Assembly: GCA_000156115.1 (NCBI GenBank)
Contig: DS995276.1
Coordinates: 2,006,175-2,070,174, forward strand
DNA from: Rhodobacteraceae bacterium HTCC2083
GTDB lineage: Bacteria > Pseudomonadota > Alphaproteobacteria > Rhodobacterales > Rhodobacteraceae
DNA length: 64,000 bases
Direction: 5' to 3'
Below the pieces are notes generated by a model. The model worked only from the letters and a program-made list of their open reading frames with translations. It was not told where the DNA came from and did no database searches. The translations under genes and the position numbers were made by a program. Positions 9,687 through 64,000 of the stretch are shown piece by piece; position 1 is the stretch's first letter; each line of letters begins with the position of its first letter.

Positions 9687-9725
9687 CTGGCGGACCTCTC
9701 TTGTGTGTGGTCTTGCGGCGCGTGT

Positions 9726-10571: not shown

Positions 10572-10643
10572 GCGCCGTTTCCGTCAGTCAGATAAGTTGA
10601 CGCTATGGTTACTCTGGCATGTGCGTGCTGTGCAAATGGTATT

Positions 10644-10678: not shown

Positions 10679-10707
10679 CACCTAAGAAGAAACAAAGGGG
10701 CTTATAT

Positions 10708-11659: not shown

Positions 11660-13153
11660 ATGCAGTCAATTAAACTCCTGATTACAGACTTAGATGACAC
11701 ACTTTTCAATTAGTTTGACCAATGGCATGCTTCATTCGAGTACCTATTTTCGGAAATTCGCTCACGTATCCCTTTGAGCGAACTTTCTGATGACGACCTG
11801 AAGTTGGAAATCAGGACAATTCACACAGTAGCTGAAACTAGCGAATACTCTTTTCTTGTAGACGAATTGCCATGTCTGTCGTCTAAATTTCCGAATATGG
11901 CTATTCGCGATGAGTTTGCTGGTGTGCTTGTCGAATATAAACGCAAGCGAAGAAAAGCATTGCGTTTGTTTCCCGGTGTGATGAAAACCTTAGAAAAGCT
12001 CAAAAGTTCTGGGGTGAAGTTAGTAGCTTACACCGAGTCCATGGAGTATCACACGGTCGAAAGACTTAAGGTGCTTGGTTTAGATGGAGTGATTGATCAT
12101 CTGTATAGTCGTGATGACCATGCTTCACCCGCACACATTGAAAAAGTAAGGCTTAGAACTGAGCCTGATGAAAACTATGCACTTGCCAATACGCGTCACA
12201 CCAAGCTCGAGATCAGTCACAGGAAGCCAGCGACTGAAATTCTAGAGAGGATTATTGCCGAATGCGGTGTTGATAAGTCTCAGTGCCTCTATGTTGGCGA
12301 CAGTCCTATGAAAGATATCGCTATGGCTAACGCTTGCGGGATTACTAGTGTTCTAATTACTCACCCAAATTCGAAGCTTAATGATGAGCGTTACGAGCTA
12401 TTGCGAAGCGTAACGCATTGGACTGATGCTGAAGTTTCTGACGAAAAAATTGTCACGCCAACACCGACCCATACGATTTCGACATTCGCAGAGCTATTAG
12501 CTTTGTTTGATTTTGGCTTAGCGAGATCGGTGTCACCGGAAGTGCTGACAGTTTGGGAAAAAACGATCGAAGTTCAAATGCATTTCAACGATATTCAGTT
12601 GAGAATTCGATCACTTTATGCATCTGTTATGGTTGGTATCGTTGGAGCAACTGGAGCAGTGATTGCAACTGTGGAGGATCCTAGCTTTGAGATTGGGAAT
12701 CTTTCATTCCATTTCGTGTTTATTGCAATTTTCGCTATTTTACTTTCCAACGCTCTTTTTTACATGATGGACCGTCACTGGTATCATCGGTTTTTACAAG
12801 GTGCTGTGATGAACGCAGTAAAAATTGAGAAAGAATTTGGATCAGTTTTGGCGGGAATCCGGCTCAGCCACGAAATTAGTTATAAGAGTAAATTTTCTTT
12901 TGCAAAATTTAGTTTTATCTATTTTGCGACATTTGCACTTAGGAAAGTGAGAGGCCAATATTTACGGGACAGCTTAGAAATTTCTTCCGATGACAGGTTG
13001 GAAATTTTCTATAGAGGTATTTATAAACCTGCCGTTATTTTACTCGGTGTCACGTTTTTTTGCGGAGGGTTGAAATATGATGGGGCCGCTATCTATGAAT
13101 TGGTATTAAACCTTCTTCCTTTTGAGGGTACACATGGCTACTTCGGTGGCTAG
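11660..13153 (+). pseudogene. HAD-domain/membrane protein broken by an in-frame amber codon
   Basis: From ATG 11660 the frame reads QSIKLLITDLDDTLFN and then meets TAG at 11711-11713, followed in the same frame by FDQWHASFEYLF and 470 further codons. HAD proteins usually have Trp at this point, and TGG to TAG is a single change, so this is probably a nonsense mutation. The catalytic DxDDT lies before the stop; motif VGDSPMKDIAMANA lies after it. The C-terminal 200 residues add two hydrophobic segments, NALFYMMDRHWYHR and a third segment near the end. A restart at TTG 11774 would lack the nucleophile. Codon use is clearly more AT-rich than in the neighbours, which suggests transfer. I do not recognise the HAD plus two-TM combination. 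Confidence 0.75.
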
Positions 13154-13209
13154 TGGTGTAATGGATCTGGTTTGTGTTTCGTAAAGCCCGAATAGCACAT
13201 TCATGTGCC

Positions 13210-13347
13210 GGGCTATCGCCAGACCGCTCGACAGGGCTGGCGATTTTGTGAGGGCAGACATCCTCATAAATGTTCGACGGATTTGGCAGGGATAAAGTGC
13301 TGCCTCAGAACTGATAGTTCGCCTGCCCAGCGGTCTGGCGATAGCCC
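13210..13347 (+). promoter_or_regulatory. Possible rpsA leader with alternative hairpins
   Basis: The 413 bases from 13154 to the rpsA start contain no convincing gene. A 19-base perfect inverted repeat pairs 13210-13228 with 13329-13347. The left arm also holds ATCGCCAG (13215-13222), which can pair instead with CTGGCGAT (13237-13244), followed by TTTG. The two pairings exclude each other, as in attenuators and r-protein leader RNAs. The right arm has its own small CCAG/CTGG hairpin. The direct role in rpsA control is inference; it could also be an intergenic repeat. Confidence 0.45.
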
Positions 13348-13566
13348 TGCGCCGCGACAGGAAGTCCTTGCTCCACACGCGATTCCCCTCTATACGCGCG
13401 AGCGTCGAGACGGTGGTTAACACCGCGCGCACTTGAGATGAGTAGGGTTGGAGCTTCCAGCCCTCTTTTTATTTTGCGTGAAACCGGATCGACCAAAGCA
13501 ACCCAAAGACCGGCGGAGACAACCGCACGGCCAGTAAAACAACGTTAAAAGGATATGAAACGCCAC

Positions 13567-15240
13567 ATGGCTAATCTAATGGACGAGTTTGAAGCACTCT
13601 TAAGCGAAAGCTTCGAAATGGACACACCCGATGAAGGGACAGTTGTCAAAGGTAAGGTCATCGCAATCGAAGCGGGCCAAGCCATTATCGACGTAGGCTA
13701 CAAGATGGAAGGCCGCGTCGACATCAAAGAATTCGCAAACCCTGGTGAAGCTCCTGAAATCGCTGTTGGCGACGAAGTTGAAGTGTTCCTGCGCTCCGCA
13801 GAGAACTCACGCGGCGAAGCGGTTATCTCTCGTGAGATGGCGCGCCGTGAGGAAGCTTGGGATCGCCTTGAGAAGGCATACGCAGACGAAGAGCGCGTTG
13901 AAGGCGCAATCTTTGGTCGCGTTAAAGGCGGCTTTACGGTTGATCTTGGCGGCGCGGTTGCGTTCTTGCCAGGTTCTCAGGTTGACGTGCGCCCTGTGCG
14001 TGACGCGGGCCCACTTATGGGTCTTAAGCAGCCGTTCCAAATCCTCAAGATGGACCGTCGTCGTGGCAACATCGTTGTTTCGCGTCGTGCAATCCTTGAA
14101 GAGTCCCGCGCAGAACAGCGTGCAGAAGTCATCGGCAACCTCACTGAAGGTCAAGCGGTTGACGGCGTTGTCAAAAACATCACCGAGTACGGCGCATTCG
14201 TCGATCTTGGCGGCGTAGACGGTCTTCTTCACGTGACAGACATGGCATGGCGCCGTGTGAACCACCCGTCCGAGATTTTGACAATCGGCGAGACGGTCAA
14301 GGTTCAGGTCATCAAGATCAACAAAGAGACGCACCGCATCTCCTTGGGCATGAAGCAGTTGCAAGAAGATCCATGGGATCTGGTTGCTGGCAAGTACCCA
14401 CTCGAGTCCACGCACACAGGTCGTGTCACCAACATCACTGATTACGGCGCATTCGTTGAGCTGGAGCCAGGTGTTGAGGGTCTCGTACACGTTTCCGAAA
14501 TGTCCTGGACAAAGAAGAACGTACACCCGGGCAAGATCGTGTCTACGTCTCAGGAAGTCGAAGTCATGGTTCTGGAAATCGACGGCACAAAGCGTCGCGT
14601 TTCTCTTGGTCTCAAGCAGACACAGCGCAACCCATGGGAAGTCTTTGCAGAGCAGTTCCCTGAGGGCACTGAGGTTGAAGGCGAAGTCAAGAACATCACC
14701 GAGTTCGGTTTGTTCATTGGCCTCGAGGGCGACATCGACGGCATGGTTCACCTCTCCGACCTATCTTGGGACGAGCGCGGCGAAGAAGCCATTCAGAGCT
14801 ACCACAAGAACGACATCGTTCAGGCGGTTGTTTCCGAAGTCGACGTTGAGAAAGAGCGTATCTCCCTCTCCGTTAAAGCGCTTGGCGGCGACAAGTTCGC
14901 TGAAGCGGTTGGCGGCGTGAAGCGCGGTTCCATCGTGACTGTCACAGTGACAGCCATCGAAGAGGGCGGCGTTGAGGTTGAGTATGAAGGCATGAAGTCC
15001 TTCATCCGTCGTTCTGATCTGTCCCGTGACCGTGCCGAGCAGCGCCCAGAGCGTTTCTCCGTTGGCGATAAAGTCGACGTGCGCATCACAAACGTGGACG
15101 CGAAGACACGCCGTTTGGGTGTCTCCGTGAAAGCGCGCGAGATCGCAGAAGAGAAGGAAGCGGTTGAGCAGTATGGTTCTTCTGATAGCGGCGCGTCCTT
15201 GGGTGATATCCTTGGCGCAGCTTTGAAGTCTGACGACTAA
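13567..15240 (+). CDS. rpsA: 30S ribosomal protein S1
   Basis: About 557 residues with repeated S1 RNA-binding domains. Repeats are visible from residue about 20 onward, with the signature G-x-V-x-x-I-T-x-[YF]-G-[AL]-F-[VI] recurring at about residues 190, 285 and 375. S1 helps the ribosome bind and unfold mRNA leaders. ATG 13567 (MANLMDEFEALL) fits the family N-terminus; the AAAAGGA at 13547-13553 is 13 bases away, and the alternative ATG 13555 is too close to it. Codon use is highly biased, as expected for a strongly expressed gene. It is followed by a clear terminator. Confidence 0.95.
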   Translation: MANLMDEFEALLSESFEMDTPDEGTVVKGKVIAIEAGQAIIDVGYKMEGRVDIKEFANPGEAPEIAVGDEVEVFLRSAENSRGEAVISREMARREEAWDRLEKAYADEERVEGAIFGRVKGGFTVDLGGAVAFLPGSQVDVRPVRDAGPLMGLKQPFQILKMDRRRGNIVVSRRAILEESRAEQRAEVIGNLTEGQAVDGVVKNITEYGAFVDLGGVDGLLHVTDMAWRRVNHPSEILTIGETVKVQVIKINKETHRISLGMKQLQEDPWDLVAGKYPLESTHTGRVTNITDYGAFVELEPGVEGLVHVSEMSWTKKNVHPGKIVSTSQEVEVMVLEIDGTKRRVSLGLKQTQRNPWEVFAEQFPEGTEVEGEVKNITEFGLFIGLEGDIDGMVHLSDLSWDERGEEAIQSYHKNDIVQAVVSEVDVEKERISLSVKALGGDKFAEAVGGVKRGSIVTVTVTAIEEGGVEVEYEGMKSFIRRSDLSRDRAEQRPERFSVGDKVDVRITNVDAKTRRLGVSVKAREIAEEKEAVEQYGSSDSGASLGDILGAALKSDD

Positions 15241-15264
15241 GCTTTGATGTGTAAGATTTGAGAG

Positions 15265-15299
15265 AGGCCCCGTGGGAGTGATCCTGCGGGGCCTTTTTT
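15265..15299 (+). terminator. Rho-independent terminator after rpsA
   Basis: GGCCCCG at 15266-15272 pairs with CGGGGCC at 15287-15293, followed by a run of six T (15294-15299). It starts 25 bases after the rpsA stop. Confidence 0.9.
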
Positions 15300-15368
15300 G
15301 TTTAGGGCGGTGAATGGCGGCTTGGAGCCCGAATTACGTGATGCCGCACCTTGCAGCCATGTCAGCTT

Positions 15369-15962
15369 TCAGGTGCCCAGATCGGGGATGATGTCGAAGA
15401 TATTCATTCCCTGCATGGTGTCTTTCTTGAAGCGGTCGGCCGTCAAGAGTTGCGCATAGCCATGCACAAGGCTCCACACGAACATCTGCTGCTTCGCTTC
15501 AACTTTGGCGGCATCCCCATGATACCGGCCAAAGTCTTTCGATAGGTCCGCCAAGATCACAAAGCATGCGCCGACATGGCGCAAAAGGTCGGGGTCGCTT
15601 GAAGACACTCTATCGCGGGCGAACATCAATTCGTATAAAGCTGGGAGTTCCTGTGCGAATGCCACATAGCCGAGTAATGCCGCCTGCCGACGGGCGCCGC
15701 GATCCGCAGTCTCTTTGACGCCCCTCTTCATGTAAGTTTCCAATTCCGCATAGCCTTGTGCTGCGAGGGCGGTCAACAGTGCCTCTTTGTTCGCGAAATG
15801 GTTTTGCGGAGCGGTCGCGCTTACACCGGCCGCTTGAGCGCACTTTCTCAAAGACAAATTACTGTGGCCCTCGGTCTCGAGCAGTCGGCGCGCGGCGGCG
15901 AGCAGAGACTCTCTGAGATTGCCGTGATGATAAGGCTTTGTGTCTTTGGCTTCTGTCTTCAT
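15369..15962 (-). CDS. TetR-family transcriptional regulator
   Basis: 197 residues from ATG 15962. The N-terminal helix-turn-helix is ESLLAAARRLLETEGHSNLSLRKCAQAAGVSATAPQNHFANKEALLTALA, a clear TetR domain at residues 13-60, and the rest is a helical ligand domain with a C-terminus of the WHG type (FVWSLVHGYAQLL). It is divergent from the hydrolase gene at 16054, and probable operators lie between them. It most likely represses itself and that hydrolase until a small hydrophobic ligand is bound. The ligand is not known. A longer frame upstream (to 16034) covers the operator region and is not likely to be translated. Confidence 0.88.
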   Translation of the reverse strand: MKTEAKDTKPYHHGNLRESLLAAARRLLETEGHSNLSLRKCAQAAGVSATAPQNHFANKEALLTALAAQGYAELETYMKRGVKETADRGARRQAALLGYVAFAQELPALYELMFARDRVSSSDPDLLRHVGACFVILADLSKDFGRYHGDAAKVEAKQQMFVWSLVHGYAQLLTADRFKKDTMQGMNIFDIIPDLGT

Positions 15963-54406: not shown

Positions 54407-54889
54407 TCAGTCAGTGTCGATGATTGAGTGCGGTGGGGCGTCAAGCGTGTTCAGGAGCGCCTGTAACATAGGTTTGAGATACCTAGCATCCGCGGTTGAA
54501 AGCTGCGCCAACAATCGCTCTTCATGCGCGCGCGCCATTGGAACCAAATGATCCACAAGGTTTTGTCCCTCAGAGGTCATAAACACACGCACGCGCCTGC
54601 CATCGTCGGGATCGTTTTGACGGCGCAGCAATCCACGGGCTTCCATCTGAGCGATAATCTTTGTGAGGCGCGATTGCTCGACCAAAGCGAGACGGGCCAG
54701 ACGTGTGATCATCGCACCGTTGCGGTCGTACAGGCAGGCCAACACACGCCATTCAGGCACGCGCAAACCATGGCTGCGCACCGTCTCATGAAACTGCGCG
54801 CTCGCCCCGTCACTTGCGGCGGCAAGCAGGTAGAGCAGGTAGTCCGTGACGAACGCTGGTTCGTCCGTTTCGAGGGGCGTGGATGTCAT
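54407..54889 (-). CDS. MarR-family transcriptional regulator
   Basis: 160 residues from ATG 54889; GTG 54898 is an alternative. EWRVLACLYDRNGAMITRLARLALVEQSRLTKIIAQMEARGLLRRQNDPDDGRRVRVFMTSEGQNLVD is the winged-helix domain with the conserved D-x-R of the wing. It is divergent from the aromatic operon at 54960 and a palindrome overlaps that promoter. MarR repressors of this type control auxin (iad) operons in Variovorax, which fits the operon here. The ligand is expected to be indole-3-acetate or a related acid. Confidence 0.88.
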   Translation of the reverse strand: MTSTPLETDEPAFVTDYLLYLLAAASDGASAQFHETVRSHGLRVPEWRVLACLYDRNGAMITRLARLALVEQSRLTKIIAQMEARGLLRRQNDPDDGRRVRVFMTSEGQNLVDHLVPMARAHEERLLAQLSTADARYLKPMLQALLNTLDAPPHSIIDTD

Positions 54890-54909
54890 AGCAAGCACTC
54901 AGAAATTTC

Positions 54910-54938
54910 TTGACCAAAAGTATATGAAAATTCATATT
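54910..54938 (+). promoter_or_regulatory. Promoter with embedded MarR operator
   Basis: TTGACC (54910-54915) and CATATT (54933-54938) are spaced by 17 bases. Between them, ATATGAA (54922-54928) and TTCATAT (54931-54937) form a perfect palindrome with two bases in the middle, which overlaps the -10. A repressor bound here would block RNA polymerase. The start of the reductase gene is 22 bases downstream. Confidence 0.7.
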
Positions 54939-54959
54939 GTTTCATAGGGAGACTGTCCA

Positions 54960-55901
54960 ATGGCCAAAATTGAAGGTGTCGTTCTTGATGTAGTGACGTT
55001 ATCCGACCGTATCAGCGGCTTGCGTGTTGCTGCAACCGATTGCAGTGCCTTACCCATTTGGGAAGCAGGCGCGCATGTGGAATTTGATGTGGCCGATGGT
55101 GCGCGTGCTTATTCGCTGATCGCCTTTGATCCTGTGACCGTCGCGCCAAGCTTCTACCAGATTGCAGTGCAACGCGAGGACGACGGTCAAGGCGGATCGC
55201 GCGCAATGCATGATTTGCAAATTGGTGATCCGATTACTTTTAGCGCCCCCAAGAATAACTTTCGAGTGAAGACCGACGCCCCTGCGGTTCTGTTGGCCGG
55301 CGGTATTGGTGTGACGCCGATGATCTCAATGGCGGCAGCTTTGCATGCTGCGGGTCAGCAGTTTGCGTTTCACTATGCGGGGCGTAGCGCGTCGGTGATG
55401 GCTTATCACGCAGAGCTTGCAGCGACTTGGAGTGATGCGTTTCACTTACATTGCGACGATAACGACAGCACGCTTGATCTGGATGCCGTCATGGTCTCAC
55501 TCAACGACGCGCATTTGTATGTCTGTGGTCCGCGCGGTCTTCTGAATGCTACACGTGCCAAAGCCGAGGCGCTGGGCATCCTGCAAAGCCGCGTACATTA
55601 CGAGCTGTTTGAAGCAGCGGCGACGCAATCCAATGACCGTGCCTTTGAGGTCCAGATCAACGATGGCACAGTCTATACAATTCCTGTGGGTCAAAGCATA
55701 ATTGACGTGCTTGAGGAAAACGACGTTGATGTCATGTATGATTGCCAGCGTGGTGATTGCGGGATTTGTCAGTGTGATGTTCTTGAGGGCACGCCGGACC
55801 ATCGTGACGTGGTGCTGAGCGATGCGGAACGCGAGGCGGGTGATGTCATGCAAATCTGTGTCAGTCGCGCGAAAACACCGCGGCTGGTGCTGGATATTTA
55901 A
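54960..55901 (+). CDS. Ring-hydroxylating oxygenase reductase (FMN/FAD, NAD, 2Fe-2S; phthalate dioxygenase reductase/VanB type)
   Basis: 313 residues. The flavin-binding ARAYSLIAFD, NAD-binding GGIGVTPMISM and C-terminal plant-type ferredoxin CQRGDCGIC (Cys262, Cys267, Cys270) with Cys300 are in the order of class IA reductases. It passes electrons from NADH to the Rieske oxygenase encoded next. It is the first gene of the MarR-divergent operon, like iadC in auxin loci. GGGAG is upstream of ATG 54960. It could also serve the P450 nearby. Confidence 0.88.
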   Translation: MAKIEGVVLDVVTLSDRISGLRVAATDCSALPIWEAGAHVEFDVADGARAYSLIAFDPVTVAPSFYQIAVQREDDGQGGSRAMHDLQIGDPITFSAPKNNFRVKTDAPAVLLAGGIGVTPMISMAAALHAAGQQFAFHYAGRSASVMAYHAELAATWSDAFHLHCDDNDSTLDLDAVMVSLNDAHLYVCGPRGLLNATRAKAEALGILQSRVHYELFEAAATQSNDRAFEVQINDGTVYTIPVGQSIIDVLEENDVDVMYDCQRGDCGICQCDVLEGTPDHRDVVLSDAEREAGDVMQICVSRAKTPRLVLDI

Positions 55902-55912
55902 AGGGTTTGAGT

Positions 55913-57253
55913 ATGGTGCGATATGCAGGAAATCCGAGTGCGGCCGCTGACTTAGTCGAGCCAAATCAGGTTCACCGCGATGTCTACATCAATCAAGATG
56001 TCTACAAGCTTGAAATGCAGCACGTCTTCGCCAACACGTGGGTGTTCGTTGGCCATGAAAGTCAGACATCTGCGAAGGGTGACTACTTTGCCACGCAAAT
56101 TGGCGATCAGCCGGTGATCCAAGTGCGCCATAAGGCGGACGATATTCATGTGCTCTACAATCGGTGTCCGCATAAAGGGACCAAGATTGTGATTGACCGA
56201 CAAGGCAACACAGGCAAGTTCTTTCGTTGTCCCTACCATGCATGGTCGTTCAAAACAGACGGCTGTTTGCTCGCGATCCCGTTGAAAAAAGGATACGAGG
56301 GCACGGATCTGGAAAAGACCGCCAGCGGCAAGGGGATGAAGGCTGTTGGCGCAGTAAAAAACTACCGCGGCTTCATCTTCGCGCGTTTGGCGGAGGAGGG
56401 GATTTCGTTCGAGGCGTTCTTTGGTGATAGCCTCAGCTCTCTCGATAATATGGTTGATCGCTCTCCCGAGGGTCGCCTTGAGGTCGTCGGCCCGCCCTTG
56501 CGCTACATGCATCACTGCAATTGGAAAATGCTGGTCGAGAACCAGACAGACACTTGCCACCCGATGGTTGCGCATGAAAGCAGCGCAGGTACGGCGGTGA
56601 AGCTCTATGAAGAGCTTGATCTGCCAGAGGGTGCGCCAAAGCCCCCCGCGATGGAGATTATTGCCCCTTTCATGAGCCCTTACGAGTTCTTTGAAGGCAT
56701 GGGTATTCGCACATGGCCCAACGGCCATGGGCATACGGGTGTGAACCATTCGATCCATTCGAATTACACCGCCATTGACGGGTATTTCGAGGCGATGACA
56801 GCGGCCTATGGGGAAGAAAAGGCCAAGGCGATTTTGGATGAAAACCGCCATAATACCGTCTATTTCCCCAATATCATGGTGAAAGGTCCGATCCAGCAAT
56901 TGCGGGTCTTTATTCCTTTGGCGGCGGATAAAACGGTGGTGGAAAGCTACATCTACCGCCTTGTTGGCGCGCCGGATGAACTGACTGCGCGCACGGCGAT
57001 GTATAATCGGATGATCAATGCTCCGACCTCGATTGTGGGGCACGATGATCTGGAAATGTACGAACGTGCGCAGGAAGGTCTCCAGAGCGATAGCATGGAA
57101 TGGGTGAACATCCAGCGGCTTTTGGAAGACGGTGAGGACTTCACTGAAGAGGCCGTCAACAACGGTACGACAGAGCGCCAGATGCGCAATCAATTCAACG
57201 CATGGGCCAAGTTTATGACTTATGATGTCGCAGCTCAGGAGGCGGTGGAATGA
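55913..57253 (+). CDS. Rieske oxygenase alpha subunit (iadD-like)
   Basis: 446 residues from ATG 55913. The Rieske 2Fe-2S ligands are Cys85, His87, Cys106 and His109 (CPHKG and CPYHAW). The mononuclear iron site lies in ENQTDTCHPMVAHESS. It is of the size and class of alpha subunits of alpha-beta aromatic ring-hydroxylating dioxygenases, and precedes its beta subunit by a 4-base overlap. In auxin-degrading loci the first step, oxidation of indole-3-acetate, is done by such an enzyme. Terephthalate-, anthranilate- and salicylate-type oxygenases share the architecture, so the substrate is inference from context. Confidence 0.88.
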   Translation: MVRYAGNPSAAADLVEPNQVHRDVYINQDVYKLEMQHVFANTWVFVGHESQTSAKGDYFATQIGDQPVIQVRHKADDIHVLYNRCPHKGTKIVIDRQGNTGKFFRCPYHAWSFKTDGCLLAIPLKKGYEGTDLEKTASGKGMKAVGAVKNYRGFIFARLAEEGISFEAFFGDSLSSLDNMVDRSPEGRLEVVGPPLRYMHHCNWKMLVENQTDTCHPMVAHESSAGTAVKLYEELDLPEGAPKPPAMEIIAPFMSPYEFFEGMGIRTWPNGHGHTGVNHSIHSNYTAIDGYFEAMTAAYGEEKAKAILDENRHNTVYFPNIMVKGPIQQLRVFIPLAADKTVVESYIYRLVGAPDELTARTAMYNRMINAPTSIVGHDDLEMYERAQEGLQSDSMEWVNIQRLLEDGEDFTEEAVNNGTTERQMRNQFNAWAKFMTYDVAAQEAVE

Positions 57254-57723
57254 GCGTTTCTAAAGATCAATTGATCGACTTCATCTATGAAGAGACGCGC
57301 ATGTTGGATGAGGGGCGCTATACCGAATGGCTCGCGCTTTGGCTGGCTGATGGTCATTACTGGATGCCGCTGGATTACAAGCAAAGCGATCCGATCAACG
57401 AGACGTCGCTGCTCTATGAAGATATGTTCATGCTAAAGCTGCGGGTGGAGCGTTTGAATGGTGTGCGCACCTTTAGCCAGAAACCTAAAAGTCGCTGTCA
57501 TCATGTCATTCAGCGTCCCTTTGTGGATGAGAGGGATGGGGGCCGTTTTGTGACCAATACCTCTATGCATTACGTGGAAACGCGGCTTGATGAACAGCAA
57601 TTACTGGCGCTGACCGCACGGCACGAATTGGCACTGGTCGACGGCAAGCTTCGGATTGCGAACAAGCGAGTGGATATCCTCAATTGCGATGCCGCGTTCC
57701 GCAATATCCAGTTGCTTCCATGA
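57250..57723 (+). CDS. Ring-hydroxylating oxygenase beta subunit (iadE-like)
   Basis: 157 residues with the NTF2-like fold. DFIYEETRMLDEGRYTEWLALWLADGHYWMPLDYKQSDPINETSLLYEDMFMLKLRVERL is the typical beta-subunit wording. The subunit stabilises the alpha3-beta3 hexamer. Start ATG 57250 overlaps the alpha stop, and its stop overlaps the ligase start by ATGA. Confidence 0.9.
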   Translation: MSVSKDQLIDFIYEETRMLDEGRYTEWLALWLADGHYWMPLDYKQSDPINETSLLYEDMFMLKLRVERLNGVRTFSQKPKSRCHHVIQRPFVDERDGGRFVTNTSMHYVETRLDEQQLLALTARHELALVDGKLRIANKRVDILNCDAAFRNIQLLP

Positions 57724-59321
57724 GCGCACTTTCGGTCTTTGAAACGTTTACGCAAACTGCGGCCCGGTGGCCGGACCGGCCCTTTTTGAATGTCTTGCAA
57801 GAGACCGCCAAGATCTATGGCATAGACGCGGGCGAGATCTCCTATGTGGAGGCGTTGGCGTTGATTCAGCGCTATGTCGCGCAGATCGAGGCGGCGCAGT
57901 ATTCCAAAGGTCAGCGCGTGATGTTGCTGCTTGAGAACCGCCCCAGCTATTTCTTATGGTGGCTTGCATTCAATGCGTTGGGTATTTCCGTGGTTCCCAT
58001 TAACCCCGATCTGCGCAAGGCAGAAATCGCCTATATGATAGGCCACGCGGAACCTATTCTGGCGATAAGCCTGTCGAACCGCGCTGAGGACTTGTGCGAG
58101 GCTGCGGCAGAGGCGGGAGTCAATATGCCCGTCGTGGTGCTTGGTGATGCGTTACCCACTGCGGTGTCTCAGGATGTAATTGCTGAGCGGATCGGCGATC
58201 CAGAGGCGGCGCTGCTCTACACTTCAGGCACCACGGGTCAGCCAAAAGGCTGCATTTTGACCAACGAGTATTTCACCCAAGCGGGGCACTGGTATAGCAC
58301 CGCAAGTGGTGTGTGTGCGCTGACCACTAAAGGCGAGCGTATGATCACTCCGTTGCCTATTTTTCACATGAATGCGATGGCGTTTTCCTTCATGGCGATG
58401 GTCTGTGTGGGGGGCTGCCTGACGGTGCTGGATCGGTTTCATCCGCGCACGTGGTGGGCAAACGTGCGCGATAGCCGCGCGACCTGTTTGCACTATTTAG
58501 GCGTGATGCCCTCGATGCTGATGGCAGCATCGTCCAGTGATCTGGATCGCGACCATTCTGTGCGCTTCGGCTTTGGCGCAGGCATTGATCCCAAACTCCA
58601 CGCCGCGTTTGAAGCGCGGTTTAACATCCCCCTTAGCGAGGGTTGGGCGATGACCGAAACCGGTGCGGGGGGCACGATCTGCGCCAACTGCGAACCGCGC
58701 GTGATTGGGAAAAGCTCTATCGGCACGCCCGATGAAACGGTCGAAGCTCGTTTGGTTGATGCGGCGGGGCAAGATTGCGATCACGGTGAACTCCTCGTGC
58801 GTGCGGCGGGGGATAATCCGCGCAAAGGCTTCTTCGCCGGATACTTTAAGAACGAGGCTGCCACATCAGAGGCATGGAAGGGCGGTTGGTTTCATACGGG
58901 TGATATTGTGCGCCGCGAAGCAGACGGCACCATGTATTTCGTAGATCGCAAGAAGAACGTGATCCGACGCTCTGGTGAAAATATCGCAGCGGTTGAAGTT
59001 GAGTCCGTGCTGGCGCACCACCCCGATATCAAAAGCGTCGCGGTTGCGGCTGTGCCGGATGCGATGAGGGGGGATGAGATCTTCGCGTGCATCGTCGCGC
59101 ATGATCATGGAACTACAGAAATAGCCAATGAGATTACCAACTGGTGCCTAACCCAACTCGCCTATTACAAAGCACCGGGGTACGTAGCCTTCGTCGATGC
59201 ACTGCCCGTCACAGCGACACAAAAACTGCAACGTGCAACCTTGAAAGCTCTCGCAGCACACTTGGTCAATGACCCATCTACAATCGACACGCGTCACTTG
59301 AAAAAGCGGAGCGTCGCATGA
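57720..59321 (+). CDS. Acyl-CoA ligase (ANL superfamily)
   Basis: 533 residues from ATG 57720. LLYTSGTTGQPKGCIL is the AMP-binding loop, GWAMTETGAGG the second, FHTGDIVRREADG the hinge and DRKKNVIRRSGENIAAVEVE the C-terminal lysine region. It makes a CoA thioester from a carboxylic acid, via an acyl-adenylate. The oxygenase product acid of this operon is the probable substrate: dioxindole-3-acetate under the auxin hypothesis. It overlaps both neighbours by 4 bases. Confidence 0.87.
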   Translation: MSALSVFETFTQTAARWPDRPFLNVLQETAKIYGIDAGEISYVEALALIQRYVAQIEAAQYSKGQRVMLLLENRPSYFLWWLAFNALGISVVPINPDLRKAEIAYMIGHAEPILAISLSNRAEDLCEAAAEAGVNMPVVVLGDALPTAVSQDVIAERIGDPEAALLYTSGTTGQPKGCILTNEYFTQAGHWYSTASGVCALTTKGERMITPLPIFHMNAMAFSFMAMVCVGGCLTVLDRFHPRTWWANVRDSRATCLHYLGVMPSMLMAASSSDLDRDHSVRFGFGAGIDPKLHAAFEARFNIPLSEGWAMTETGAGGTICANCEPRVIGKSSIGTPDETVEARLVDAAGQDCDHGELLVRAAGDNPRKGFFAGYFKNEAATSEAWKGGWFHTGDIVRREADGTMYFVDRKKNVIRRSGENIAAVEVESVLAHHPDIKSVAVAAVPDAMRGDEIFACIVAHDHGTTEIANEITNWCLTQLAYYKAPGYVAFVDALPVTATQKLQRATLKALAAHLVNDPSTIDTRHLKKRSVA

Positions 59322-60487
59322 CGCGCTTGCCCTATGATGGCGTTGTGCTCACGGCCCCTGTGTCTGTGCCCTATGAGCGCTATACAAATGAGAGCGCGCA
59401 TTGGTGGATTGCCCGCGCGCTGCGGGAAGCGCTAAAAAAGGCAAGCGTCACACCTCAAGAATTAGATGGCCTGTCCGTTTCTAGTTTCACACTTGCGCCC
59501 GACACGCCCGTTGGTCTGACGCAGCATTTTGGGATCTCTCCTCGTTGGCTCGATACGGTTCCGATGGGCGGCGCGAGTGGTGTGGCCGCCATGCGTCGTG
59601 CTGCGCGTGCTGTACAATGCGGCGACGTGGATGTCGTGGCTTGCGTTGCGGGCGACACCAACCGGATCGACAGTTTTCGCAACCTTCTATCGGCTTTTTC
59701 GCGCTTTTCGATGGATGCGACCTTTCCTTACGGGTTTGGCGGCCCCAACGCGAGCTTCGCGCTTTTGCAGGACGCCTATTGCCACACCTACGGGGCCACT
59801 CGTGAGGATTTTGGCAAGATAGCCGTGTCACAGCGCGCCAATGCCTTGCACAATCCGCACGCGATTATGAAGAAGCCCTTGAGCCTTGCGCAATACATGG
59901 CCGGGCGAATGATTTCGGATCCGATCAGCCTATTTGATTGCGTGATGCCTTGTGCGGGATCAGAAGCGTTTGTCATGATGCGTGAAGAAATGGCGGTTGC
60001 GAAGGGTCTGCCATACGCGCGGATCAGCGCCACAATAGAGCGCACGAATGCGTTTCCTGACGATCCTATGCAACTGCGTGGCGGTTGGGTCGTGGATATT
60101 GAAGAGCTGTGGGATATGGCTGGGCACGGGCCTGACGCCATCGACGTTTTACAAACCTACGACGACTACCCGGTGATTTGCATGATGCAATTCGAAGATC
60201 TCGGATTTTGTGCGAAAGGCGAGGGGGCAGAGTTTGTGCGCAGGCATGATCTCACCATCGGCGGAGGCTTTCCCCATAACACGTCTGGAGGTCAGCTTTC
60301 TGTCGGACAGGCTGGTGCCGCGGGCGGATATCTAGGGCTGGTCGAGGCGATCCGCCAAGTGACTTGCACCGCTGGACCGACACAGGTTGAGGGTGCCAAA
60401 CGCGCAGCTGTGTCTGGGTTCGGGGTGATTAATTATGATCGTGGACTTTGCTCAGCGGCAGCTGTGATTGAGGGGGTAAATCGATGA
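59318..60487 (+). CDS. Thiolase-fold protein lacking the catalytic Cys and His; probable aldolase
   Basis: 389 residues of SCP2-type thiolase fold. Where thiolases have the nucleophile in CASG, this protein has GASG (Gly85 in VPMGGASG), and the C-terminal GHP-type motif reads VGQAGAAG with Gln331. The substrate-site FPHNTSGG (His320) is kept. The same loss of Cys is known in Ltp2-type retro-aldolases, which act with a DUF35 partner, and the next gene here encodes a DUF35 protein. A thiolytic reaction is therefore unlikely; cleavage of a beta-hydroxyacyl-CoA to a carbonyl compound and acetyl-CoA is the better guess. It overlaps both neighbours by 4 bases. Confidence 0.8.
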   Translation: MTRLPYDGVVLTAPVSVPYERYTNESAHWWIARALREALKKASVTPQELDGLSVSSFTLAPDTPVGLTQHFGISPRWLDTVPMGGASGVAAMRRAARAVQCGDVDVVACVAGDTNRIDSFRNLLSAFSRFSMDATFPYGFGGPNASFALLQDAYCHTYGATREDFGKIAVSQRANALHNPHAIMKKPLSLAQYMAGRMISDPISLFDCVMPCAGSEAFVMMREEMAVAKGLPYARISATIERTNAFPDDPMQLRGGWVVDIEELWDMAGHGPDAIDVLQTYDDYPVICMMQFEDLGFCAKGEGAEFVRRHDLTIGGGFPHNTSGGQLSVGQAGAAGGYLGLVEAIRQVTCTAGPTQVEGAKRAAVSGFGVINYDRGLCSAAAVIEGVNR

Positions 60488-61734
60488 CAACACCCCTGAC
60501 GCTACCGCCAAAGAAAGACCCGCAAAAGCGCACGAAGGTCCCTGTCTTACCTCCCGTTGCGCGCGGTCGCGCAGCGCTGGGCTTGGGGGTGATGGCGGCG
60601 CAAGGGCGCTTTGGATTACAGGTCTGTTCCGAGTGCGCGGCAATCCAGTATCCGCCGCGTGATGCATGTGTGAAATGCATGTCTGAAGACTTGGCTTGGC
60701 AGGATGTCGATCCTACGGGCAAAGTGATGGCAGAAACCACGATCCGCGTGTCGCCTGAACCCTATTTTCGCGAACGCATGCCGTGGCGCATGGGCGCGGT
60801 GCAGCTTGCGGTCGGTCCAACACTGAATTGTCATTTGCACGGCGAAATCGGTCGCGGAGATGCGGTTCGTATGGCACTGAAACTTGATAAAGCTGGGCAG
60901 GGCGTGTTGATTGCGCTACCGCTGAAAGGAAGTGATGTGATGCAAGATGATCCTGTTCTTCGTGCGATGTCGTGTGATCCCAAACACCGCCGCATCCTAA
61001 TCAGTGATGCCCGTGCGCCAATGGCCCTAGCGCTGACACAGGCCATGCTGTCCGCAGGTGCCGCGCATGTGTTTCTCGGAGAACCTGAAGCGTGGCTGTC
61101 TTGGCCGGAACGTGCGGAGCTTGAGGGGATGGAGAACGTGTCGATCATGCCCTTAGATGTGACGGATGTGTCTTCGGTCGCCAAGCTTGCGGCGGAAATT
61201 GGGGGTAAAGTTGATATCTTGATCAACACCGCAAGCTACGTGCGCGTGGGGGGGATCATGGACAATGATACGAGTTTTGCGAGCAATAGTTTTGAGGTGA
61301 ACGCACTAGGCCTAATGCGTCTTGCTCAAGGCTTTGGGCGGGCCATGTCAGGACGCGTGCAGGATGGTATAAATTCGGCGGCTGCTTTTGTGAATATCCT
61401 CTCGGTGCGCGCGCTGTCGCCGGATGCAAACTACGGCGCATTTGGGGCGTCGCAGGCCGCCGCGCGCTCGATCTCGCAAAGCTTGCGCGCGGAATTCCAA
61501 AGTAGCGGGATGCGCATGATGAATGTCTACATTGGCCCCATTGAAGGCGATGCATGGTTCCAACCTTTGCCACCTCCCAAAGTGACACCAAATGCGATTG
61601 CGCGCTCTGTGGTGAGCGGCTTGGTCGATGGCTTGGAAGAGGTCACATGCGGCGATATTGCGCGCGATGTTTACGCGCGCTGGCAGGCTGATGCGCTGCT
61701 ACTGGAGCGCGAGATGACAGGGGGTGGATCATGA
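60484..61734 (+). CDS. DUF35 (zinc ribbon/OB) fused to a degenerate short-chain dehydrogenase domain
   Basis: 416 residues in two parts. The first 165 hold the zinc ribbon C48-x2-C51 and C62-x2-C65, then an OB fold (GKVMAETTIRVSPEPYF to VRMALKLDKAGQGVLI). From about residue 168 a Rossmann/SDR domain follows (RRILISDARAPMALALTQAML to LINTASYVRVGG). Its dinucleotide loop lacks the GxxxGxG glycines, and the catalytic YxxxK is FGASQ (Phe320 and Gln324), so it is probably inactive as a dehydrogenase. The DUF35 part would bind the thiolase-like partner. Fusion with an SDR is unusual but resembles known BbsAB-type DUF35/thiolase pairs. Confidence 0.82.
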   Translation: MTTPLTLPPKKDPQKRTKVPVLPPVARGRAALGLGVMAAQGRFGLQVCSECAAIQYPPRDACVKCMSEDLAWQDVDPTGKVMAETTIRVSPEPYFRERMPWRMGAVQLAVGPTLNCHLHGEIGRGDAVRMALKLDKAGQGVLIALPLKGSDVMQDDPVLRAMSCDPKHRRILISDARAPMALALTQAMLSAGAAHVFLGEPEAWLSWPERAELEGMENVSIMPLDVTDVSSVAKLAAEIGGKVDILINTASYVRVGGIMDNDTSFASNSFEVNALGLMRLAQGFGRAMSGRVQDGINSAAAFVNILSVRALSPDANYGAFGASQAAARSISQSLRAEFQSSGMRMMNVYIGPIEGDAWFQPLPPPKVTPNAIARSVVSGLVDGLEEVTCGDIARDVYARWQADALLLEREMTGGGS

Positions 61735-62504
61735 GCGATGTGATTGCAAATGTGGCCGAAGCCCTTGCAGAGGGAAGTGCGCGTATCGTCGATTTGACCC
61801 ACACGTTAGACCCTGATTTTCCGGTCATCATTCTGCCGCCAGAATTTGGCCAATGCGCGCGGTTTCGGATGGAAGAGGTCAGCGCATATGATCATCGTGG
61901 CCCTGCCTGGAAGTGGCACAAGCTAACGTTGAACGAACACACGGGCACGCATTTTGATGCACCCTCGCATTGGGTGTCGGGCAAGGATGTGCCGAATGGT
62001 GATGTGGACGAGATTGATCCAAGCGTCTTTGTTGGCCCTGTGGTTGTGATCGATTGCTCAGCTGGTGCGGCAGAGGATGTTGATTTTGAACTTACGCCTG
62101 ATGTGATCCTTGCGTGGGAGGCAGAGCATGGTGAGATCCCAGCAGATGCTTGGGTGCTGATGCGCACGGATTGGTCGAAACGCAGCGGGGCGCAGTATCT
62201 CAATATGGCCGAAGATGGCCCCCATTCACCGGGGCCAACTCCAGATGCAATTCGGCTATTGTTAGAGAGAGATATTCGCGGCTTCGGGACAGAAACAGTG
62301 GGCACGGACGCGGGGCAAGGATCGCATTACGTGCCGCCATACCCTGCGCATTATTTACTGCACGGGGCCGGTAAGTTCGGTCTGCAATGCTTGTGCAATC
62401 TAGATCAATTACCTGCCATAGGTGCGTTGCTAATCGCGCCGCCGTTAAAGATAAAAGGCGGCACAGGCAGCCCTACGCGCGTGCTGGCGATGGTGAACAC
62501 ATGA
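61731..62504 (+). CDS. Cyclase-family metal hydrolase (isatin hydrolase/kynurenine formamidase-like)
   Basis: 257 residues. The metal motif HTGTHFDAPSHW has His70, His74, Asp76 and His80, the signature of the PF04199 family. Isatin hydrolase from marine Rhodobacteraceae has this size and motif. It opens the lactam of isatin to isatinate with Mn2+. In this operon it would act on the isatin released by the aldolase pair. Kynurenine formamidase is the main alternative, but no other tryptophan genes are here. Confidence 0.78.
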   Translation: MSDVIANVAEALAEGSARIVDLTHTLDPDFPVIILPPEFGQCARFRMEEVSAYDHRGPAWKWHKLTLNEHTGTHFDAPSHWVSGKDVPNGDVDEIDPSVFVGPVVVIDCSAGAAEDVDFELTPDVILAWEAEHGEIPADAWVLMRTDWSKRSGAQYLNMAEDGPHSPGPTPDAIRLLLERDIRGFGTETVGTDAGQGSHYVPPYPAHYLLHGAGKFGLQCLCNLDQLPAIGALLIAPPLKIKGGTGSPTRVLAMVNT

Positions 62505-63226
62505 ACAAATATACCGCTGTCATAACAGGGGGCAGCAAGGGGATTGGCGCTGATCTGGGTCAGCGTTTGATCGCGAAGGGCTATGATGTTGTATCCTTAT
62601 CGCGCGGTGTCCCAGAATGGTCCGATGCGCGTTTGCATCATGTTGAAGTCGATCTGCTTGATGCTACGGCTACCGAGCAAGCCGCGTGCGAGATTGCCGC
62701 CGCTCACAACGTCACGCACTTTGTGCACAACGCAGGTATCATCTGGCCCAATCTGGTGGAAGAGGTGAGCGCGTCTGATTTAACGGGCCTCACGCAAATT
62801 CATCTTGGCGCGCCTTTGATCCTGCTCCAAGCCTTTTTGCCTGCGATGAAAGCCAACCACTTTGGTCGTGTTATGTTCAACGGTTCTCGCGCGGCTTTAG
62901 GCGTGCCTACTCGCACCGCTTATTCCGCAACGAAGGCGGGCATTATCGGCATGGCGCGCACATGGGCGCTAGAGCTTGCACCGCATGGGATCACGGTCAA
63001 TGTCGTCTCGCCCGGACCTGTGCAAACTGATAATTTCTGGGACATCATCCCGAAAGGCAGTGGGCGTGAAGCTGATCTTGCCAAGCGAATTCCCGTTGGA
63101 CGTCTGGGAATAACGCGCGATATTTCGAATGCGTTTATGTTCTTCTGCGATCCCGAGAATAGCTTTGTGACCGGCCAAAACCTATTCGTGTGTGGGGGTG
63201 GTAGCGTCGGGGCGATGTCGCTCTGA
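62501..63226 (+). CDS. Short-chain dehydrogenase/reductase
   Basis: 241 residues from ATG 62501 (ATGA overlap). VITGGSKGIGADLGQRL is the NAD(P) motif, VHNAGI follows, and FNGSRAALG with YSATKAG give the catalytic Ser, Tyr and Lys. FVTGQNLFVCGGGSVG is the usual SDR ending. It is an active classical SDR, unlike the fused one upstream. It may oxidise an oxygenase product (for example a dihydrodiol or a hydroxy-oxindole) or reduce a ketone; the exact role is not clear. Confidence 0.82.
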   Translation: MNKYTAVITGGSKGIGADLGQRLIAKGYDVVSLSRGVPEWSDARLHHVEVDLLDATATEQAACEIAAAHNVTHFVHNAGIIWPNLVEEVSASDLTGLTQIHLGAPLILLQAFLPAMKANHFGRVMFNGSRAALGVPTRTAYSATKAGIIGMARTWALELAPHGITVNVVSPGPVQTDNFWDIIPKGSGREADLAKRIPVGRLGITRDISNAFMFFCDPENSFVTGQNLFVCGGGSVGAMSL

Positions 63227-63292: not shown

Positions 63293-64000
63293 ATGACGTC
63301 TGCTCTCCTCATTCGTAATCGCAATTACCGGCTTTTGTTCAGCGCAGGCGGGATGACCAATCTTGGAGACGGCTTGATCGTGCTCGCGCTGCCGTGGCTT
63401 GCGGCACTGATGACGCGCGATGCTGTAGCGATTGCGGCTGTGGCTGCGGCTGGCCGCTTGCCTTGGCTCTTGTTTGCGCTGCCTGCGGGGGTGATTATTG
63501 ATCGGAGCGATCAACGCAAACTTATCGCGCGGGCGGATTTGCTCCGCGCGGCTATCGTGTTCGCGATCTTCTTGCTTGCCGTGAGCGATCCGATTGCAGA
63601 TGCAATCTGGTTGGTTGCAGGCCTGGCCTTCCTGCTTGGTTCTGTCGAAGTGCTTCGTGACAATGCGGCGCAAACCATCTTGCCCGCTATTGTTGCCGAA
63701 GAAGATCTTGAGGCGGCCAATGGCCAGTTATGGAGCACGGAACAACTGACAGGCCAGTTCATCGGCCCGCCTTTGGCAGGTGTTTTGATTGCGAGCGGCA
63801 TAGGCCTGCCTTTTGGCATAGACGTGGCGATGTTGGTCCTCGCGGCTTGCTTGGTCTGGCTGATCAACTTGCCTGCGCAGGTGCGGGTCCAGAAAAGCTT
63901 TGGCAAAGCGCTGTTGGAGGGTATCGCATTCATGCGCGCTGATCGCGTACTTTTGCGGTTGGCGATTGTATTGGGGGTTGCAAATTTCCTCGCAACGGCA
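63293..64000 (+). CDS. MFS transporter (3' end outside window)
   Basis: The frame from ATG 63293 runs off the right edge. MTSALLIRNRNYRLLFSAGGMTNLGDGLIVLALPWLAALMT is the MFS first segment, and RLPWLLFALPAGVIIDRSDQRKLI is the loop 2-3 motif. Six or more membrane segments are visible. It resembles the MFS subgroup near enterobactin exporters. It may import or export a compound of the upstream operon, from which it is 66 bases away. Confidence 0.8.
   Translation, partial: MTSALLIRNRNYRLLFSAGGMTNLGDGLIVLALPWLAALMTRDAVAIAAVAAAGRLPWLLFALPAGVIIDRSDQRKLIARADLLRAAIVFAIFLLAVSDPIADAIWLVAGLAFLLGSVEVLRDNAAQTILPAIVAEEDLEAANGQLWSTEQLTGQFIGPPLAGVLIASGIGLPFGIDVAMLVLAACLVWLINLPAQVRVQKSFGKALLEGIAFMRADRVLLRLAIVLGVANFLATA

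What the first reader, a model, noticed from the sequence alone, without database searches (positions are those of the whole stretch)
54407..63226. Possible auxin (indole-3-acetate) catabolic operon with an isatin route in a Rhodobacteraceae genome
A MarR gene faces an overlapping operon: class IA reductase, Rieske alpha and beta, CoA ligase, Cys-less thiolase-fold protein, DUF35-SDR fusion, isatin hydrolase-like protein, SDR and MFS. Known iad loci (Variovorax, Bradyrhizobium) have MarR regulators and a Rieske oxygenase that attacks indole-3-acetate; an older Bradyrhizobium route passes through dioxindole-3-acetate, isatin and isatinate; isatin hydrolase is known from marine Rhodobacteraceae. 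All parts fit one path: oxidation, CoA ligation, retro-aldol cleavage of dioxindole-3-acetyl-CoA to isatin and acetyl-CoA, then hydrolysis. I cannot see the later anthranilate steps in the window.
Basis: partly seen in the sequence, partly recalled or inferred. Interest (0 to 1): 0.85.

Follow-up and report, generated by a model that had tools for sequence, protein, structure and literature searches.

The report
Marine-type auxin-degrading operon with retro-aldolase
This bacterium carries a full set of genes matching a known pathway that would break down the plant hormone auxin, and their active sites indicate that the side chain is likely split off by a reverse-aldol enzyme rather than by the thiolase so far assumed.

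Summary
In detail: a MarR gene faces eight close-packed genes, the iad operon (iadR; iadCDEFGHIJ) for indole-3-acetate (IAA). The Rieske alpha subunit is 55% identical to Variovorax paradoxus IadD, keeping 7 of 7 metal ligands and 8 of 9 IAA-pocket residues. The hydrolase is 81% identical to Labrenzia isatin hydrolase A, with 7 of 7 listed catalytic residues. The order C to J equals that of a Variovorax-like genome, and Ruegeria pomeroyi, already reported to degrade IAA, has the same operon. So the pathway is known. Added here: (1) IadG has the signature of retro-aldolases, not thiolases (Gly, Tyr, Gln for Cys, His, His), with a YDDY motif; its partner IadH carries DUF35 and an SDR domain without an intact active site (Tyr with Lys in 0 of 196 rows), against the published thiolase/alcohol-dehydrogenase assignment; (2) iadAB lie just outside the window; across 295 genomes isatin hydrolase occurs in 59 of 63 with IadA (60% identity or more) and 0 of the other 232, pointing to isatinate as the likely IadAB substrate; (3) a palindromic operator candidate occurs at one place in the genome, between iadR and iadC. 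Nothing was tested at the bench.

The parts
54407..54898 (-). iadR: MarR-family regulator, predicted IAA-responsive repressor
   Evidence: Best solved match 3CDH (R. pomeroyi MarR, 169 bits), then 7KFO/7KKI of the V. paradoxus study (90 bits); Tyr15, Ser28, His32, Trp45 and Arg46 of MarR_73 conserved, Ala18->Tyr and Val65->Leu
54922..54937 (.). Predicted IadR operator ATATGAAAATTCATAT (inverted repeat) in the iadR-iadC gap
   Evidence: Core ATGA-W4-TCAT in 22 of 22 relatives' iadR-iadC gaps examined and once in the rest of those 22 loci; RYATGAWWWWTCATRY occurs at one place in the 4.0-Mb genome, this one
54960..55901 (+). iadC: flavin/2Fe-2S reductase of the oxygenase
   Evidence: Fer2 and NAD_binding_1; 47% to the Variovorax-like iadC in the same place
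55907..57253 (+). iadD: Rieske oxygenase alpha subunit (likely start ATG 55913)
   Evidence: 240/434 identical to V. paradoxus IadD 9o71; 7 of 7 metal ligands, 8 of 9 pocket residues
57250..57723 (+). iadE: oxygenase beta subunit
   Evidence: Ring_hydroxyl_B; 49% to the Variovorax-like iadE
57720..59321 (+). iadF: AMP-forming CoA ligase, predicted dioxindole-3-acetate--CoA ligase
   Evidence: AMP-binding; 55% to the Variovorax-like iadF
59318..60487 (+). iadG: thiolase-fold protein, predicted retro-aldolase (Gly85, Tyr281, Asp283, Gln331)
   Evidence: Best solved matches include the aldolases CtSal 9MYR (163 bits) and TcLtp2 6OK1 (124 bits); Y281-D282-D283-Y284, G84-G85 and Q331 in 69 of 69 sequences
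60484..61734 (+). iadH: DUF35 (zinc ribbon + OB fold) fused to an SDR-fold domain without an intact active site; predicted partner of IadG
   Evidence: zf-ChsH2, OB_ChsH2_C, adh_short; DUF35 part matches 6OK1_B and 9MYR_B; zinc Cys4 in 196 of 196 rows, Tyr with Lys in 0 of 196
61731..62504 (+). iadI: isatin hydrolase
   Evidence: 490 bits to isatin hydrolase A 5NNB, 202/249 identical, 7 of 7 listed metal/catalytic residues kept
62501..63226 (+). iadJ: SDR dehydrogenase with intact active site
   Evidence: T-G-x-x-x-G-I-G, S129, Y141, K145 in 37 of 37; 55% to the Variovorax-like iadJ
63293..64000 (+). MFS transporter (cut by window end); not a conserved part of the operon
   Evidence: PF05977/PF07690; not seen in the other 80 loci at the identity cut-off used

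Best explanation
Window 54,407-63,226 holds iadR and iadCDEFGHIJ, an operon that is predicted to be induced by indole-3-acetate, to oxidise it to dioxindole-3-acetate, to link that to CoA and likely to cleave it by a retro-aldol reaction into isatin and acetyl-CoA, after which isatin would be hydrolysed to isatinate. Steps (all inferred for this organism): IAA frees IadR from its operator. IadC passes electrons to the Rieske oxygenase IadDE, which adds one oxygen; IadJ oxidises the hydrated product to dioxindole-3-acetate (both reported for Variovorax by others). IadF makes the CoA thioester, a beta-hydroxyacyl-CoA. IadG, in complex with the DUF35 domain of IadH, would cleave it: Tyr281 as base on the C3 hydroxyl, Asp283 as the acid that protonates the acetyl-CoA enolate. 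The SDR-fold part of IadH is taken to be a non-catalytic scaffold. IadI opens isatin. IadAB, just downstream of the window, likely consumes isatinate, and an acyl-CoA pathway elsewhere in the chromosome would finish the ring.
For: Identity of parts. Same genes with the same C-to-J order in a Variovorax-like genome whose IadD is 94% identical to the structure 9o71; same operon in R. pomeroyi beside a MarR 98.6% identical to 3CDH, whose KD for IAA is 0.237 uM in print (passage). Retro-aldolase: where the thiolase 7YVY has Cys, His, His (BbsB: His, His; its Cys lies outside the aligned part), IadG has Gly85, Tyr281, Gln331, as CtSal does (alignments read against PMC12329534); invariant in 69 of 69 and in the three further sequences. 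IadH: first Gly of the cofactor motif replaced in 196 of 196 rows, Tyr with Lys in 0 of 196, zinc Cys4 in 196 of 196, while IadJ keeps these motif residues in 37 of 37. Coupling: 26 of 26 IadD genomes have IadG, of 295 examined. Operator. In Variovorax, deleting iadG or iadH reduces anthranilate and lets C10H9NO4 build up, as expected of one two-part enzyme, though deleting iadF or iadI does the same.
Against: No growth, enzyme or expression data for this organism. In Variovorax, C8H7NO2 (formula of dioxindole, not isatin) builds up without IadI, which read literally asks for a reduction; I explain it by isatin being reduced elsewhere in the cell, untested. Asp283 as the acid has no precedent among the aldolases read (CtSal uses Cys, TcLtp2 a second Tyr), and in CtSal changing that Cys to Ala, Ser or His left no detectable activity. 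The Variovorax-like IadH still has the Lys (Phe/Lys), so the decay is not uniform; 44 of 196 rows keep the Tyr without Lys, and 190 of 196 keep the Ser. Gln213 replaces Leu211 in the IAA pocket. True thiolases are among the next matches of IadG (7YVY 116 bits, BbsB 101 bits). The first product is disputed in print: oxIAA in vitro (PMC10374108) against a different C10H9NO3 (PMC12633357). No structure model could be made.
Confidence: 0.82

Rival explanations
1. Published assignment: IadG is a ketothiolase and IadH an alcohol dehydrogenase, and together with IadF they remove the side chain reductively to dioxindole.
For: PMC12633357 (section 5) infers this from annotations; C8H7NO2 accumulates when iadI is missing. 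The Variovorax-like IadH keeps the SDR Ser and Lys.
Against: IadG lacks the thiolase Cys and both active-site His. IadH lacks the first cofactor Gly in 196 of 196 rows and never has Tyr with Lys; the copy on the R. pomeroyi DSS-3 megaplasmid lacks Ser, Tyr and Lys together. Dioxindole-3-acetyl-CoA is a beta-hydroxy, not a beta-keto, thioester, so thiolysis has no ketone to attack (chemical inference).
Confidence: 0.12
2. IadAB is an indolepyruvate oxidoreductase that feeds indole-3-acetyl-CoA into the pathway, not an isatinate enzyme.
For: Family names: IadB scores 636 bits to PRK08312 'indolepyruvate oxidoreductase subunit beta family', over its cut-off of 348; iadA/iadB are called indolepyruvate ferredoxin oxidoreductase in PMC9613470. 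The isatin hydrolase B-like gene of this genome is fused to a kynureninase-like domain, so part of the co-occurrence could reflect tryptophan/kynurenine use. In Variovorax iadC-K2 without iadAB restores anthranilate.
Against: IadA (60% identity or more) occurs with isatin hydrolase in 59 of 63 genomes, against 0 of the other 232; within 5 kb in 42 of 59, and in 31 of the 33 that lack IadD. The 8 genomes with only a divergent IadA have no isatin hydrolase match. IadA scores 282 bits to the IOR_alpha model, under its cut-off of 651.
Confidence: 0.35
3. The operon serves a different indole or aromatic acid and IAA is a side substrate.
For: One pocket residue differs (Leu211->Gln213); no test in this organism.
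Against: 8 of 9 pocket residues and the MarR carboxylate ligands conserved; same operon in R. pomeroyi, reported to degrade IAA.
Confidence: 0.06

Closest known systems
iad locus of Variovorax paradoxus CL14/CL014 (PMC9613470, PMC10374108, PMC12633357)
   Same: Homologues of iadR and iadA-J; same C-to-J order as the Variovorax-like genome G379; conserved oxygenase and regulator residues
   Different: iadAB lie convergent downstream, not upstream; no IadK2 ABC binding protein in the operon; an unconserved MFS gene follows iadJ; operator core not found in the Variovorax-like locus
iad operon of Ruegeria pomeroyi (MarR 3CDH)
   Same: Rhodobacterales like the window's relatives, same gene order, same operator core
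   Different: 56-78% identity per protein to the strain SZCCDBG043 copy; the DSS-3 megaplasmid carries an iadC-J set of its own without a MarR match beside it (the DSS-3 chromosome was not searched)
DUF35-dependent steroid retro-aldolases CtSal-CtShy (9MYR) and TcLtp2-ChsH2 (6OK1)
   Same: Thiolase fold without nucleophile, YDxY/F motif, Gln331 as in CtSal, DUF35 zinc-ribbon partner
   Different: YDDY instead of YDCY or YDHF; DUF35 fused to an SDR fold instead of a hydratase domain; predicted substrate is an oxindole
Isatin hydrolase A of Labrenzia aggregata (5NNA/5NNB)
   Same: 81% identical over 249 residues, 7 of 7 listed catalytic residues
   Different: Nothing found that would change function

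Membership tests
iad-like IAA degradation locus | iadD/iadE oxygenase of the IAA-specific clade | tested here: met
   551 bits to 9o71 against 136 for the next kind; ligands 7/7, pocket 8/9
iad-like IAA degradation locus | iorA/iadA and iorB/iadB as exclusive markers (PMC9613470) | tested here: met
   L088:12284-14371(-) and 10704-12287(-), immediately past the window; 65% and 43% to the Variovorax-like pair
iad-like IAA degradation locus | IadR-type MarR with Ser28/His32/Arg46 | tested here: met
iad-like IAA degradation locus | Degrades IAA through isatin and isatinate | not testable with these tools
   No culture or enzyme data
iac-like locus | iacA marker present | not tested
   iacA was not searched for in the genome; no flavoprotein monooxygenase family showed among the operon's proteins
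DUF35-dependent retro-aldolases (Sal/Ltp2) | No thiolase nucleophile Cys; catalytic Tyr in a YDxY/F motif | tested here: met
   Gly85 and Tyr281 in 69 of 69
DUF35-dependent retro-aldolases (Sal/Ltp2) | Known second catalytic residue (Cys304 in CtSal or Tyr344 in TcLtp2) | tested here: not met
   Asp283 stands at the Cys304 place in 69 of 69; the Tyr344 place is ambiguous in the alignment. IadG is therefore not filed as a Sal or Ltp2, only as working like them
Thiolases (SCP2 type) | Nucleophilic Cys plus the HDxF and GHP histidines | tested here: not met
   Gly85, Tyr281, Gln331
Classical SDR dehydrogenases (IadH C-terminal part) | TGxxxGxG and Ser-Tyr-Lys | tested here: not met
   0 of 196 with Tyr and Lys, 0 of 196 with the first Gly
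Isatin hydrolase | HxG[T/A]HxDxPxH, Asp193/His207, GLQC | tested here: met
   and alignment; motif from PMC6117287 (passages)

The most novel reading that the evidence does not exclude
IadG-IadH is a third catalytic type of DUF35-dependent retro-aldolase (Tyr/Asp, YDDY), scaffolded by a dead dehydrogenase, that splits dioxindole-3-acetyl-CoA to isatin and acetyl-CoA; and IadAB is an isatinate (2-aminophenylglyoxylate):acceptor oxidoreductase that makes 2-aminobenzoyl-CoA directly, so the pathway in Rhodobacteraceae bypasses free anthranilate.
Probability: 0.38. Interest if true: 0.68.

Novelty: new member of a known kind. Interest (0 to 1): 0.47.

Why it matters
Auxin passes between algae, plants and bacteria, and in the papers read the steps after dioxindole-3-acetate in the iad pathway are assigned from annotations. 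The residue evidence here gives a concrete, testable correction (retro-aldolase with a dead-SDR partner, not thiolase plus alcohol dehydrogenase) and a likely substrate for the unexplained marker genes iadAB, in a pathway that others are already installing in plant-associated bacteria.

Tried and rejected
Rejected: an oxygenase for another aromatic acid (solved terephthalate dioxygenase 78 bits and salicylate 5-hydroxylase 93 bits against 551 for IadD; benzoate model BenA 193 bits under its cut-off of 781). Rejected as part of the operon: the MFS gene. The PhyH and P450 genes upstream were not examined in relatives. I first noted that the SDR Lys is absent in all IadH (0 of 72); the Variovorax-like sequence keeps it, so the claim was narrowed to 'never Tyr and Lys together'. 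Of 81 loci 30 hold G-H-I alone, 25 of them titled Bradyrhizobium; this first looked like a different pathway, but in three genomes with an iadG of that type (G111, which is the contig of L086 by length and position; G200; G217) iadD lies 19-32 kb from iadG on the same contig. Two of the seven genomes with an IadD match that I checked, G324 (IadD 61%) and G237 (43%), have no IadG match at 1e-60. The operator core was not found in the Variovorax-like, Bradyrhizobium-like, L111 or DSS-3 megaplasmid loci.

Led nowhere: structure prediction (switched off), so no model or fold search backs the active-site reading. No tree-aware control was run for the co-occurrence tests; the sample was one genome per genus (295 genera), and the p-values overstate independence.

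Selections: IadG (69), IadH (72) and IadJ (37) sets are those of 81 loci that passed my identity and 85% coverage cut-offs. The 196 IadH rows are those 72, four extra (the window itself, Variovorax-like, L111, DSS-3) and the 120 listed of 1164 protein hits; they overlap one another. The 20 IadA loci read were picked by me, most for nearness to the monooxygenase gene (17 of 20 hold an isatin hydrolase match), so the argument rests on the 295-genome counts. The 22 relatives used for the operator are loci with iadR facing iadC whose coordinates I had at hand. Four of the 106 genomes counted for the monooxygenase have only a 47-49% match; without them the count in IadD genomes is 23 of 26 instead of 24.
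Full report
1. Observation. From iadD to iadJ each gene overlaps the next by four bases (coordinates). The window is G000:C5:2006175-2070174 of a 4.0-Mb genome; the nearest relatives fetched with its isatin hydrolase are a Rhodobacteraceae MAG and Planktotalea.

2. It is an iad operon. IadD: 551 bits to V. paradoxus IadD 9o71 and 547 to 7yls, then 136 bits for the next structure; 240 of 434 residues identical; the Rieske ligands Cys/His/Cys/His, the iron ligands His/His/Asp and 8 of 9 IAA-pocket residues listed in PMC10374108 (passages read) are conserved, Leu211 being Gln213. MarR: 169 bits to 3CDH of R. pomeroyi, whose KD for IAA is given as 0.237 uM, the highest affinity measured there (PMC9613470, passage); Ser28, His32 and Arg46, which hold the IAA carboxylate in MarR_73 (passage), are conserved. 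IadI: 202 of 249 residues identical to Labrenzia isatin hydrolase A; His69, His73, Asp75, His79, Asp193, His207 and Gln219 (PMC6117287, passages) are conserved.

3. Context. A genome whose IadD is 94% identical to 9o71 has iadA-B-C-D-E-F-G-H-I-J in that order. In R. pomeroyi strain SZCCDBG043 (L067) the same operon lies beside a MarR 98.6% identical to 3CDH. R. pomeroyi is among the strains reported to degrade IAA (PMC9613470, passages). PMC9613470 names iadA/iadB (indolepyruvate ferredoxin oxidoreductase type) exclusive markers of iad-like loci. Here they lie just past the window, convergent to iadJ: L088:10704-12287(-) and 12284-14371(-), followed by a second MarR at 14445-14927(-). Of 81 loci around an isatin hydrolase relative, 29 hold all of C to J and 30 hold G-H-I alone, 25 of these titled Bradyrhizobium; in three genomes with such an iadG (G111, G200, G217) iadD lies 19-32 kb away on the same contig. 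Of seven IadD-bearing genomes checked by handle, five have IadG and two do not. In the family, IadD occurs in 26 of 295 genomes and IadG in 27, all 26 included.

4. How the side chain is removed. PMC12633357 (preprint; outline, sections 5, 6, 7 and 11 and passages read) reports that deleting iadCDE, F, G, H, I or J reduces anthranilate in Variovorax, that IadDE acts as a monooxygenase and that IadJ likely makes C10H9NO4, taken as dioxindole-3-acetate. For F, G and H it 'resorted to annotated enzyme function': IadG a ketothiolase, IadH an alcohol dehydrogenase. The sequences say otherwise. In one search the closest solved relatives of IadG are CtSal (163 bits), 4U4E, named only thiolase (130), and TcLtp2 (124), before 7YVY (116) and BbsB (101). 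PMC12329534 (abstract and passages) gives the aldolase signature: Gly at the place of the nucleophilic Cys, a base Tyr in YDCY (CtSal Tyr302) or YDHF (TcLtp2 Tyr294), and Gln352 in CtSal. Read on the alignments, IadG has Gly85, Tyr281 and Gln331, where 7YVY has Cys, His and His and BbsB has His at the last two (its Cys lies outside the aligned part). These residues are invariant in 69 of 69 IadG and in Variovorax-like, L111 and DSS-3 IadG. IadG differs in Asp283 (YDDY, 69 of 69) at the place of the catalytic Cys304. Chemically (inference), the CoA ester of dioxindole-3-acetate is a tertiary beta-hydroxyacyl-CoA, the substrate type of these aldolases; cleavage gives isatin and acetyl-CoA without redox change, and isatin is what IadI hydrolyses.

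5. IadH. Its DUF35 part matches the partner domains of both aldolases (6OK1_B, 9MYR_B), with the zinc Cys4 in 196 of 196 rows. In its SDR part the first Gly of TGxxxGxG is Asp, Asn, Glu or Ser in 196 of 196, and no row has both Tyr and Lys (window Phe/Gln; Variovorax-like Phe/Lys; DSS-3 Thr/Ala with Pro for Ser); the Ser is kept in 190 of 196 and the Tyr in 44. The rows overlap and are not independent. IadJ, an SDR of the same operon, keeps these residues in 37 of 37. That deletion of iadG and of iadH have like effects in Variovorax fits one two-part enzyme but is not specific, since iadF and iadI deletions also let C10H9NO4 build up. Against my reading stands the build-up of C8H7NO2 without IadI, which the preprint takes as the product of F-G-H; I take it as isatin reduced elsewhere (untested). 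The first oxidation product is itself disputed: oxIAA in vitro (PMC10374108) against another C10H9NO3.

6. Control. The 61-bp gap holds ATATGAAAATTCATAT. The core ATGA-W4-TCAT is in 22 of 22 relatives' iadR-iadC gaps examined, with one other match in the rest of those loci; RYATGAWWWWTCATRY occurs at one place in the genome, here. Binding is predicted, not shown. The core was not found in the Variovorax-like, Bradyrhizobium-like, L111 or DSS-3 megaplasmid loci.

7. After isatinate. Isatin hydrolase (A or B type, matches at 1e-55 or better to L120:13150-13929, itself closest to the solved isatin hydrolase B 4J0N at 417 bits) occurs in 59 of 295 family genomes. All 59 have IadA at 60% identity or more; 63 genomes do; 0 of the other 232 have a hydrolase match (Fisher p 8e-58, not corrected for relatedness). 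The two lie within 5 kb in 42 of 59, and in 31 of the 33 without IadD. A large flavoprotein of the 2-aminobenzoyl-CoA monooxygenase/reductase kind occurs in 59 of those 63 and in 47 of the 232, in 24 of 26 IadD genomes, and in this genome at C5:291689-293980. NCBIfam names it bifunctional salicylyl-CoA 5-hydroxylase/oxidoreductase (1270 bits, over the cut-off of 1078); the 2-aminobenzoyl-CoA reading is mine, recalled, and rests on its neighbours (a benzoate-type CoA ligase just under that model's cut-off, acyl-CoA dehydrogenase, enoyl-CoA hydratase, SDR, Rid protein). Eight genomes with only a divergent IadA (51-53%) have no hydrolase match and 1 of 8 the flavoprotein. I infer that IadAB acts on isatinate, an alpha-keto acid, likely forming 2-aminobenzoyl-CoA. 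Against: Variovorax makes anthranilate from iadC-K2 without iadAB; IadB passes an indolepyruvate-oxidoreductase family cut-off; and in this genome the hydrolase B domain is fused to a kynureninase-like domain, with long open frames around it in some other genomes, so some of these hydrolases may serve tryptophan breakdown.

8. In print. Searches of the held library: isatinate with 2-aminobenzoyl-CoA (0 papers); IadG, IadH, retro-aldol, dioxindole-3-acet- (3 papers, none with retro-aldol); (listings; of these I opened PMC9613470, PMC12633357, PMC6221969 passages and PMC8383072 passages). I saw no earlier statement of the aldolase or IadAB proposals there; most subscription papers are not in that library. 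PMC8383072 uses the name iad for an iac-type cluster of a Pseudomonas. PMC11630574 (passages) reports iad-like operons in 2 of 304 marine MAGs.

9. Verdict. The operon is a new member of a known kind. The aldolase/dead-SDR reading and the IadAB substrate are the new, testable parts.

Noticed in passing
L141:1489-3543 (-) (G000:C5, around 3856359-3857141): The genome's second isatin hydrolase-like domain (51% to IadI) is fused to a kynureninase-like PLP domain; long open frames around such hydrolases occur in some other family genomes.
   Followed up: partly
L088:9467-10707: The MFS gene between iadJ and iadB contains a masked run just past the window end and has no relative at the cut-off used in the other 80 loci.
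   Followed up: partly
L095 (Ruegeria pomeroyi DSS-3 megaplasmid, 7585-15903): An iadC-J set 47-62% identical to the window's, without a MarR match beside it; its IadH lacks Ser, Tyr and Lys of the SDR site.
   Followed up: partly
L096 (Sulfitobacter sp. DSM 110093 plasmid, 6978-15915): iadR-iadCDEFGHIJ lies about 6 kb from repC on a plasmid, beside TRAP transporter genes; 13 Sulfitobacter plasmids are listed with an IadG of 77-79% identity.
   Followed up: partly
window:33329-35749 (-): Two adjacent Rieske oxygenase alpha subunits (370 and 430 aa) in the same window.
   Followed up: no
window:47657-53588: LysR regulator facing PIG-L, RraA-like aldolase, PrpF, amidohydrolase and P450 genes: looks like another aromatic-acid catabolic block (recalled resemblance).
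   Followed up: no
L041, L045, L046, L055, L064, L065: MAG loci (titled Proteobacteria, Alphaproteobacteria, Acetobacteraceae or Rhodospirillales) with iadA-iadB-isatin hydrolase and no iadCDEFGH in the stretch held: a possible isatin-only module.
   Followed up: partly
G379 (L103, L105, L106, L107): The Variovorax-like genome carries three IadD-like genes (55%, 49% and 42% to the window's).
   Followed up: no
L023:15736-17304 and, by eye, L122:6774-8351: A carotenoid-desaturase-like FAD protein sits between isatin hydrolase B and the second MarR/iadA; role unknown.
   Followed up: no
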